A program made the translations under genes and the position numbers. From assembly GCA_029257465.1 (NCBI GenBank), contig JARIBG010000011.1:22170-86169 (forward strand): a DNA stretch of 64,000 bases, written 5' to 3'. Below the pieces are notes generated by a model. The model saw only the letters and a program-made list of their open reading frames with translations. It searched no databases and was not told the DNA's origin. Source of the DNA: Arthrobacter sp. GTDB lineage: Bacteria > Actinomycetota > Actinomycetes > Actinomycetales > Micrococcaceae. This document shows, piece by piece, positions 11,708-13,801 of the stretch (position 1 is its first letter; every line of letters starts with the position of its first letter).

Positions 11708-12430
11708 TCAAAGTAGCCTGCGCTCCTGCACCGCGCGCCTCCGGGCTCGCCTGTGACTCAACCAGATGAGGTACAGGCCCAGCACTGTGAGCAGGATGGC
11801 CGAGAACGGCAGGATCACGTTCCACCGCATGAGATCGAGGCCCATGAGCCTCAGGAGGACGAACACCACCACGAGCAGGAATCCACCGGCAAGCAGGGCG
11901 CCTGCCACGCGATGGATCGGTCGTGCCCGCCGGTCGAGCACGGACACCACCGTCGGTACGATCAGGCACGCGGCCACATAGCCCGGATAGAGCCGCCCTA
12001 CGGCGGCGTACTCCCGGACCGTGGCCTGGTCCGAGAAGTCCGTCAAACCCACGGAGCTGCCGGGAAGTTCGCTCGCCACGAAGAAGTACAGGGTCGCCGC
12101 GATCGCAAGGCCGAGGATGGCCAGGCCGAACGGTCCGGCGATCAGACGGCGCGCGAGGGGGGAGTCGAACGCCGCAGCCACCCGGACGCCGATGAGGACG
12201 AAGACCGCATATAGCACCATTCGCAGGACGAGGTTGGTCGCGTTCACACCTCCCAGCACGGCATCGACGCCGTCGTAGAGGGGCTCGATGGACAGAGCGA
12301 CGGCGAAGGTCAGGAGCAGGAGTGCGGCACACATGGTCCGTCCTCGCCCCCGCAGTGCAGCGGGAACACGAACAGCGGCTGCGACGGCGCACAGGGCCAG
12401 TGCAACCCACTGGATGATCGAGGCGGTCAT
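11708..12430 (-). CDS. Putative seven-transmembrane protein, coupled to the upstream HTH gene
   Basis: MTASIIQWVALALCAVAAAVRVPAALRGRG...; seven hydrophobic segments by eye; ATGA overlap with the HTH gene stop (12427-12430). Confidence 0.7.
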   Translation of the reverse strand: MTASIIQWVALALCAVAAAVRVPAALRGRGRTMCAALLLLTFAVALSIEPLYDGVDAVLGGVNATNLVLRMVLYAVFVLIGVRVAAAFDSPLARRLIAGPFGLAILGLAIAATLYFFVASELPGSSVGLTDFSDQATVREYAAVGRLYPGYVAACLIVPTVVSVLDRRARPIHRVAGALLAGGFLLVVVFVLLRLMGLDLMRWNVILPFSAILLTVLGLYLIWLSHRRARRRAVQERRLL

Positions 12431-13161
12431 CCGAGGTTCTCCCACAGAGCACGGTCCCTGCCGTCGTCGAGCTCCGCCCGGCGCATCTGCTTCCCCAGGA
12501 CGTCGAGCCGGTCACGGGCGAGCAGGACGAGATCGAGATCGTCGATCGCTCGCAGCGCTCCTGCCCGCCTGTCCTCGGGCCAGCCCCCCTCCTCGGGAGT
12601 GAGCAGGCCGGTCACCACCAGGCCGCTGGCCAGGGACACACCGGCGATACGACCGGCCTGCACGGCGATCCACGGGGCGAGGCGTCCGGCCGTGAGCTGC
12701 GCCGAGAGATTCTGGCGCGCGACGCCGGTACTGGAGGCCAGCTGCTGGCGCAGGTCACCCGGATCGATCGCCTCGATCCAGGCCCTCACCGAGTTGCGAT
12801 GCGGGAAAGCAGCGAGACCGAGCCGGCTGTCGGTCCAGACGCACTCCGTGGTTCCGCTCCGGGCCACGAGGAGACGGAGGATGTCGATATGGGAGACCTG
12901 GCTCAGGAGTTCGGCCGCCGTCGGCGCGGTGATACCGGAGGGGAGATCCTCGAAGCCGTTGAATTCCGCAAGGGCGTCGACGACCGACAGTGAGTAGCCA
13001 CGCGCTATGGCGACGATGGTGGAGACCGAGACCTTACCCCTGACGAGCTGCTGGGCGAGGGTGGAGCGCTTGATACCGGCAGTCCTGCAGAGGTCGGACA
13101 CCGTGTCCTCCGGGGCGATCCGCGGTCGCCAAAGCTGGAACGCTTTGGCTGTGACGGCCAT
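12427..13161 (-). CDS. Putative DNA-binding protein with two HTH-like segments
   Basis: MAVTAKAFQLWRPRIAPEDTVSDLCRTAGIKRSTLAQQLVRGKVSVSTIVAIARGYSLSVVDALAEF plus a second similar segment DLRQQLASSTGVARQNLSAQLTAGRLAPWIAVQAGRIAGVSLASGL; start chosen by AAAGGTG upstream of ATG 13161. Confidence 0.6.
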   Translation of the reverse strand: MAVTAKAFQLWRPRIAPEDTVSDLCRTAGIKRSTLAQQLVRGKVSVSTIVAIARGYSLSVVDALAEFNGFEDLPSGITAPTAAELLSQVSHIDILRLLVARSGTTECVWTDSRLGLAAFPHRNSVRAWIEAIDPGDLRQQLASSTGVARQNLSAQLTAGRLAPWIAVQAGRIAGVSLASGLVVTGLLTPEEGGWPEDRRAGALRAIDDLDLVLLARDRLDVLGKQMRRAELDDGRDRALWENLG

Positions 13162-13212
13162 CATCACCTTTCGATTGGACTTTTCGGTGTCCTGTAGAAG
13201 TATACTGAGATT

Positions 13213-13261
13213 GCTGGCTCCGATTTCTGCGATTCCCCCATACGCAGAACGCGGAGCCAGC
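13213..13261. repeat. 19-bp inverted repeat (17/19 paired), 11-nt loop containing CCCCC
   Basis: GCTGGCTCCGATTTCTGCG - ATTCCCCCATA - CGCAGAACGCGGAGCCAGC. Confidence 0.9.
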
Positions 13262-13309
13262 TCCATTTCAGCTGGTCAGGGGCTTTTTCACCAGGGTGTC
13301 ATCCCCCCG

Positions 13310-13549
13310 CTACCACCGCACCTTCCTCTCCTGCTTGCCCTGCTTGGCGCTCTCGTGTGCCGCTTTGACGTGCCCGGCCCCGGTGGTAGCGGCAGGATTG
13401 GCCGCCTGATTCTTCCGCTCGAGGGCGAGCCGGGCGCGGGGGTCCTCCTGCACGCTACGGGCCGGGGATCGTGTCCCGGCTGCTGGTGCGTCCTGGTCCG
13501 CAGCGGGTGTGCCCGACGCCGGGGATTCGTGGTCTGGCTTGCTGGTCAT
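13310..13549 (-). CDS. Small, probably disordered hypothetical protein
   Basis: MTSKPDHESPASGTPAADQDAPAAGTRSPARSVQEDPRARLALERKNQAANPAATTGAGHVKAAHESAKQGKQERKVRW; low-complexity Ala/Pro-rich, basic C-terminus. Confidence 0.5.
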   Translation of the reverse strand: MTSKPDHESPASGTPAADQDAPAAGTRSPARSVQEDPRARLALERKNQAANPAATTGAGHVKAAHESAKQGKQERKVRW

Positions 13550-13801
13550 GGTGTGCCTCTCTGGTCTGAGCAGCCCACGGATCACGTCGGAACCCACCCA
13601 TGGCAGTACAGGGCCGCGAAGGGTGGACCGGACATCTTCTGTGGGCGCTCTTGGAGTGCTGTCATCGACAAGTGGCGCCGATCAGGGTGTGGACCGTGAT
13701 CGATTACCGGAACAGAAGTGTCTTCATGACGCTCGACGCTACACCCGCCCACCGACCGCGACAAGGGTCCGGTCCCCTGTGGGAGGGATCGACGTCCGCG
13801 A

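What the first reader, a model, noticed from the sequence alone, without database searches (positions are those of the whole stretch)
13195..13294. 19-bp inverted repeat with C5 loop beside a TATACT box: operator or structured small RNA
Seen: GCTGGCTCCGATTTCTGCG-ATTCCCCCATA-CGCAGAACGCGGAGCCAGC pairs 17/19. The palindromic AGTATACT (13199-13206) gives a -10-like hexamer on both strands. On plus, the hairpin begins 7 nt after TATACT and a TTTTT run occurs at about 13284, which would give an RNA of roughly 75-80 nt. On minus, the repeat covers the -35 region of the HTH gene. Established: actinobacterial 6C RNAs have C-rich hairpin loops. This has one C5 loop and no clear second C-loop, so it is not a confident 6C RNA.
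Basis: partly seen in the sequence, partly recalled or inferred. Interest (0 to 1): 0.6.

Follow-up and report, generated by a model that had tools for sequence, protein, structure and literature searches.

The report
C-loop small RNA beside regulator gene
The inverted repeat is the gene of a short, unannotated hairpin RNA with a run of cytosines in its loop; it is kept in at least seven genera of Arthrobacter relatives, always back-to-back with the same DNA-binding-protein gene, and probably silences messenger RNAs by pairing with G-rich ribosome-binding sites.

Summary
The repeat is real (13213-13231 / 13243-13261, 17/19 pairs). It is conserved in 38 of 39 genomes of the window's genus (Arthrobacter echini/agilis group). 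A covariance model finds it, with a C5-C6 loop, in about 90 of 298 family genomes, in seven genera, once per genome. Between genera 17 of 19 stem pairs show compensatory changes. G·U pairs accumulate on the plus strand (15 columns, against 4 if the minus strand were the RNA), so the structured molecule is the plus-strand RNA. A TATACT/TATGCT/TATAGT box ends 6 nt before the hairpin in 59 of 71 loci, and a -35-like TTGGAC/TTTTAC box usually sits 18-20 nt further up. All 71 loci examined carry the same two-domain HTH gene divergently, 46-117 nt away. Rfam has no credible match, and RF01066 (6C) is not met: one hairpin, not two. The TTTTT at 13284 is not conserved, so the proposed 75-80-nt end is unsupported. 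Best explanation: a new actinobacterial C-rich-loop sRNA whose promoter abuts the hairpin, divergent from a dedicated XRE-like regulator. Targeting of G-rich Shine-Dalgarno sequences is inferred by analogy with 6C/B11; my target searches showed no enrichment. Expression was not tested.

The parts
13213..13261 (+). sRNA hairpin (19-bp stem with a 2-nt internal mismatch, 11-nt loop); most likely the body of the RNA, 5' end at or within 1-2 nt of 13213
13232..13242 (+). loop AUUCCCCCAUA; C5 at 13235-13239; invariant in the genus except one G (C6) variant; C5-C6 then A in all seven genera
13201..13206 (+). -10 box TATACT of the sRNA promoter, ending 6 nt before the hairpin; TATACT/TATGCT/TATAGT in 67 of 71 loci
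13175..13180 (+). -35-like box TTGGAC; 20 nt from the -10 in this genus, 18 nt in most others (TTGGAT, TTTTAC); inferred, not consensus
13199..13204 (-). overlapping TATACT on the opposite strand, possible -10 of the HTH gene (AGTATACT is palindromic); conserved within the genus only
13262..13273 (+). tail TCCATTTCAGCT; weakly U-rich; the equivalent place is TTTTT-TTTTTTT in some genera; probable 3' end region of the RNA
12427..13164 (-). divergent partner gene, 245 aa, two XRE-like HTH domains (AlphaFold pLDDT 91); present at all 71 loci examined

Best explanation
The repeat is the gene of a small regulatory RNA read from the plus strand. A promoter (TTGGAC at 13175, TATACT at 13201) starts transcription at the foot of the hairpin, and the RNA is essentially one long, very stable stem that shows a C5 (elsewhere C6) loop; in several genera the same stem followed by a U-run also serves as terminator. 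Shown: conservation, compensatory changes, strand bias, fixed box-hairpin distance, constant divergent HTH neighbour. Inferred: it is expressed, it acts in trans by loop pairing with G-rich Shine-Dalgarno sequences (as 6C/B11 does), and the divergent XRE-like protein controls the shared promoter region.
For: 38 of 39 genus genomes keep the 25-mer with at most one mismatch while the HTH protein falls to about 60% identity. The covariance model gives 47-76 bits once per genome in about 90 of 298 family genomes (my count of the listing). Stem: 17 of 19 pairs with changes on both sides, 89.9% of cells paired against 73.4% in shuffles, covariation 0.577 against 0.271, none of 500 shuffles as high; slid structures pair 33-45%. 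G.U on the plus strand against A-C: 44 to 10 cells outside the three basal pairs, 15 columns against 4. -10 box ends 6 nt before the stem in 59 of 71 loci; -35-like box at 18 or 20 nt in 55. Divergent HTH in 71 of 71, including 23 loci found by DNA pattern or model alone. U5-U7 run after the stem in some genera. B11 (6C) C-loops repress by pairing with a G6 tract in a 5' UTR, with compensatory mutants (PMC10470900).
Against: No transcript was seen. The window's own tail is a poor U-tract and the scanner finds neither consensus promoter nor terminator. The -35-like spacing of 20 nt is long. Target searches gave no enrichment, and the full 11-nt loop complement occurs nowhere else in the own, 84% complete, genome.
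Confidence: 0.62

Rival explanations
1. DNA operator: the repeat is a binding site of the divergent HTH protein, which represses its own gene.
For: The repeat lies 48 nt upstream of the HTH start and would overlap the -35 region of a minus-strand promoter; partner and repeat always occur together. HTH protein is XRE-like.
Against: Stem letters change in both arms between genera with pairing kept, and G.U is tolerated on one strand only: a duplex operator has no strand preference. The 11-nt loop is as conserved as the arms. Between genera the repeat has little common sequence beyond the C-run, although the proteins stay 44-60% identical.
Confidence: 0.1
2. The structured RNA is in the minus strand: a leader hairpin with a G5-G6 loop in the mRNA of the HTH gene.
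For: Same strand as the HTH gene and always upstream of it.
Against: G.U pairs sit on the other strand; the model scores 72 bits on plus and 33 on minus in the window (the model was built on plus). The TATACT box lies between hairpin and gene, so the hairpin would be upstream of the start site unless a further promoter exists.
Confidence: 0.06
3. Terminator or attenuator: the hairpin ends or attenuates transcription of a neighbouring gene rather than making a trans-acting RNA.
For: Strong GC stem; U-run in some genera; in two genera an ABC-protein gene starts downstream in the same direction (L111, L115). The hairpin also follows the 95-aa minus-strand ORF in the window.
Against: Downstream genes differ: convergent 95-aa ORF, endonuclease, acetyltransferase, or codirectional ABC genes, while box, hairpin, loop and HTH stay. 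A terminator needs no conserved C5-C6 loop. Weak model hits that look like ordinary terminators lack the C-loop.
Confidence: 0.12
4. Antisense pair with the HTH mRNA: the sRNA mainly controls its divergent neighbour by pairing with its G-rich Shine-Dalgarno.
For: In some clades the HTH SD is complementary to the loop (L097 GGGGGAG; L115-L118 GGGGGG; L049 GGGGGA; L099 TATGGGGG).
Against: Only 11 of 71 leaders have 6 or more pairs, against a mean of 5.1 and a maximum of 11 in shuffled leaders; the window's SD is AAAGG.
Confidence: 0.1

Closest known systems
6C RNA (Rfam RF01066; B11/ncRv13660c in mycobacteria)
   Same: Actinobacterial sRNA; stable GC stem with a C-run in the loop; C-loops pair with G-rich 5' UTRs in M. 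abscessus (PMC10470900)
   Different: One hairpin instead of two; C5 in this genus; different neighbours (6C lies near Ms1 RNA in mycobacteria, PMC9569102); no Rfam match
Streptomyces sRNA family scr5583/sar2652/svr5279 and scr1434 family (PMC3765725)
   Same: Very stable stem-loop with a C-rich terminal loop, seen on Northern blots
   Different: Described in Streptomyces only; homology was not tested here because their sequences were not at hand
RNAIII and other C-rich-loop sRNAs of Firmicutes
   Same: C-rich loop aimed at Shine-Dalgarno sequences (recalled; also cited in PMC3765725)
   Different: Unrelated sequence, architecture and host
Symmetric (bidirectional) bacterial promoters
   Same: Palindromic AGTATACT gives a -10 in both directions (own knowledge; seen in this genus)
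   Different: In most other genera of the set only the sRNA direction keeps the -10 (27 of 71 do not read as -10 on the HTH strand)

Membership tests
6C RNA (RF01066) | Covariance model score at or above the gathering cut-off (47 bits) | tested here: not met
   no RF01066 hit at this locus or in 25 related loci even at E<=1 (E<=10 in the window); best hit of the own genome is elsewhere at 18.5 bits
6C RNA (RF01066) | Two hairpins, each with a C-rich loop | tested here: not met
   a single hairpin; no second C-loop downstream
6C RNA (RF01066) | Six or more C in the loop | tested here: not met
   C5 in the window and nearly all of its genus; C6 in most other genera
6C RNA (RF01066) | Pairing with G-rich 5' UTR of target mRNAs | tested here: inconclusive
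   G-rich-SD patterns not enriched over genomes without the RNA (ratio 4.3 against 4.9 in comparable genera)
Structured trans-acting sRNA (general) | Conserved structure with compensatory changes on one strand | tested here: met
Structured trans-acting sRNA (general) | Own promoter | tested here: inconclusive
   Conserved -10 box and -35-like box at near-fixed distance, but no consensus match in the window
Structured trans-acting sRNA (general) | Discrete transcript | not testable with these tools
   needs RNA-seq or Northern
Intrinsic terminator | GC stem followed directly by a U-run | tested here: not met
   window tail TCCATTTCAG; met in some other genera (L098, L102, L109, L114)
Operator of the divergent HTH regulator | Duplex site with conserved half-sites and no strand preference | tested here: not met
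   half-sites change with pairing kept; G.U bias to one strand

The most novel reading that the evidence does not exclude
A two-part regulatory module confined to Arthrobacter and relatives: a single-hairpin C-loop sRNA and a dedicated two-HTH-domain regulator share a divergent promoter, the protein setting sRNA level and the sRNA globally damping translation of G-rich-SD genes, in some clades including the regulator itself (feedback loop).
Probability: 0.3. Interest if true: 0.7.

Novelty: new variant of a known kind. Interest (0 to 1): 0.55.

Why it matters
C-rich-loop sRNAs are a main class of post-transcriptional regulators known in actinobacteria, yet they are studied in mycobacteria, corynebacteria and Streptomyces. 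The only Arthrobacter sRNA report I found (PMC6696678) names four transcripts without a conserved family. This locus gives a candidate with near-universal presence in seven genera, a single short hairpin that is easy to mutate, and a fixed protein partner. It allows a direct test of whether a lone C-loop hairpin suffices for SD targeting, and of whether an sRNA and a transcription factor can co-evolve as one divergent module.

Tried and rejected
Rfam at gathering and relaxed thresholds: only chance hits. 6C in own genome and relatives: none above the cut-off in the genus. Mobile element or phage origin: the core 25-mer is absent from 2.9 million viral contigs, and the 86-base region has no match in phage and plasmid records; single copy in own genome. 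TTTTT at 13284 as the 3' end: not conserved. Target search: TATGGGGG upstream of ATG in 13 genus genomes gave 43 hits (6 of them the hairpin itself) against 43 in the reversed control; recovered ORFs showed no shared target gene; TTGGGGGG pattern across 121 genomes no more enriched in genera with the matching loop than in comparable genera without it. HTH mRNA as a general target: not supported. Model hits below about 45 bits, and hits outside the family, were rejected as ordinary GC hairpins: the best inspected lack the C-loop. HTH family naming: no Pfam or NCBIfam model reaches its cut-off and Foldseek gives only the generic XRE domain. The NAR 2019 6C target paper is not held.

Full report
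Observation. The plus strand folds at -32.4 kcal/mol, z -7.7. Repeats of this quality occur 0.03 times per random window of this composition. It is single copy in the own genome.

Conservation. A 131-base query finds the place in 35 of 36 genomes of the genus, own genome included, and in none of 22 genomes of other families. The named relatives are Arthrobacter species: A. echini, A. agilis, A. ruber, A. bussei, A. crusticola. The 25-mer TTCTGCGTATGGGGGAATCGCAGAA is found in 38 of 39 genus genomes, with one mismatch in one of them; the missing genome is 68% complete. In the alignment the stem, the loop, the TATACT box and GTCCA (plus TTGGAC) stand out as conserved while the flanks drift. The distance from TATACT to TTGGAC is constant, but the distance from TTGGAC to the HTH start codon varies by insertions of up to 26 nt (L051, L052, L056, L057), which ties TTGGAC to TATACT rather than to the HTH start.

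Beyond the genus. Homologues of the divergent HTH protein occur in 14 of 32 family genera. Upstream of many of them lies a hairpin whose stem letters differ but whose loop again carries C5-C6 on the strand opposite to the gene. An alignment of 23 diverse hairpins shows 17 of 19 pairs with changes on both sides, a covariation score of 0.577 against 0.271 in shuffles, and collapse when one arm is slid. RNAalifold finds the same stem independently.

Which strand. If a duplex or the HTH-strand RNA were under selection, A-C mismatches (G.U on the other strand) would be as frequent as G.U. In 39 distinct sequences there are 44 G.U against 10 A-C cells outside the basal three pairs, at 15 against 4 columns overall (cells are related, so the binomial value is only indicative). 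The A-C cells are at the base and at the internal mismatch. The functional RNA is therefore the plus strand, opposite to the HTH gene.

Promoter and end. In 71 distinct upstream regions a TATACT (37), TATGCT (20) or TATAGT (10) box precedes the stem, and 59 have exactly 6 nt between box and stem, the usual start-site distance. A TTGGAC/TTGGAT/TTTTAC box lies 18 or 20 nt upstream in 55. These are inferred promoter elements: the window itself has no consensus sigma-70 match. The 3' side holds U5-U7 runs in some genera (L098, L102, L109, L114) but only TCCATTTCAG in the window. The TTTTT at 13284 is not conserved, so the RNA's 3' end is unknown.

Partner gene. All 71 loci have the HTH gene divergently, 46-117 nt away; 23 of these loci were found by DNA pattern or model without using the protein. 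The reverse does not hold: several HTH homologues lack the hairpin (L105-L108, L112). The protein has no family model above its cut-off; AlphaFold predicts two helix-turn-helix domains at pLDDT 91, and the best solved neighbours are generic XRE domains such as DdrO and SinR. Downstream neighbours of the hairpin differ between clades, so it is not a fixed leader.

Distribution. The covariance model gives 47-76 bits once per genome in about 90 of 298 family genomes in seven genera (g1, g28, g31, g40, g47, g50, g53), by my count of the listing. Weaker hits are ordinary hairpins without a C-loop. Across the class nothing credible appears outside the family: the best hit, 43.7 bits, lacks the C-loop.

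Mechanism. A stable stem presenting a C-run is what 6C/B11 uses: its C-loops pair with a G6 tract in the eccB4 5' UTR, and compensatory mutants restore repression (PMC10470900). I infer the same mode here. Attempts to find targets were negative: no enrichment of loop-complementary SDs, no recurring target gene, and no second full loop complement in the own genome. The HTH mRNA itself has a complementary SD in some clades only. The targeting step is therefore an inference by analogy.

Known or new. Rfam 15 has no match. 6C membership fails on model score, hairpin number and, here, C count. Streptomyces has single C-rich-loop sRNAs (PMC3765725), whose homology I could not test. I file this as a new family of a known kind, a variant in architecture: one hairpin and an obligate divergent regulator.

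Noticed in passing
13310-13597 (-): 95-aa ORF ending KVRW* is conserved with the same C-terminus in most of the genus but matches no Pfam or NCBIfam model.
   Followed up: partly
13301-13318 / 13381-13398: Second inverted repeat (18 nt, 89%) with arms 62 nt apart, spanning the 3' end of the 95-aa ORF.
   Followed up: no
centres 11451 and 32422: The two other 19-nt inverted repeats of the same quality in the window; 11451 lies just after the HPr gene and is likely a terminator.
   Followed up: no
L029 (WNZI01000005.1): Record titled Vibrio cholerae strain 35D carries an Arthrobacter locus with 81% identical HTH protein: mislabelled or contaminated assembly.
   Followed up: no
L111, L227 and L115, L220: In two genera the sRNA hairpin lies just upstream of, and codirectional with, an ABC-protein gene (ABC-F-like in one, ABC-exporter-like in the other), so it may have gained a leader role there.
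   Followed up: partly
11708-12445 (-): Predicted membrane protein of unknown family whose start overlaps the end of the HTH gene; probably one operon with it.
   Followed up: no
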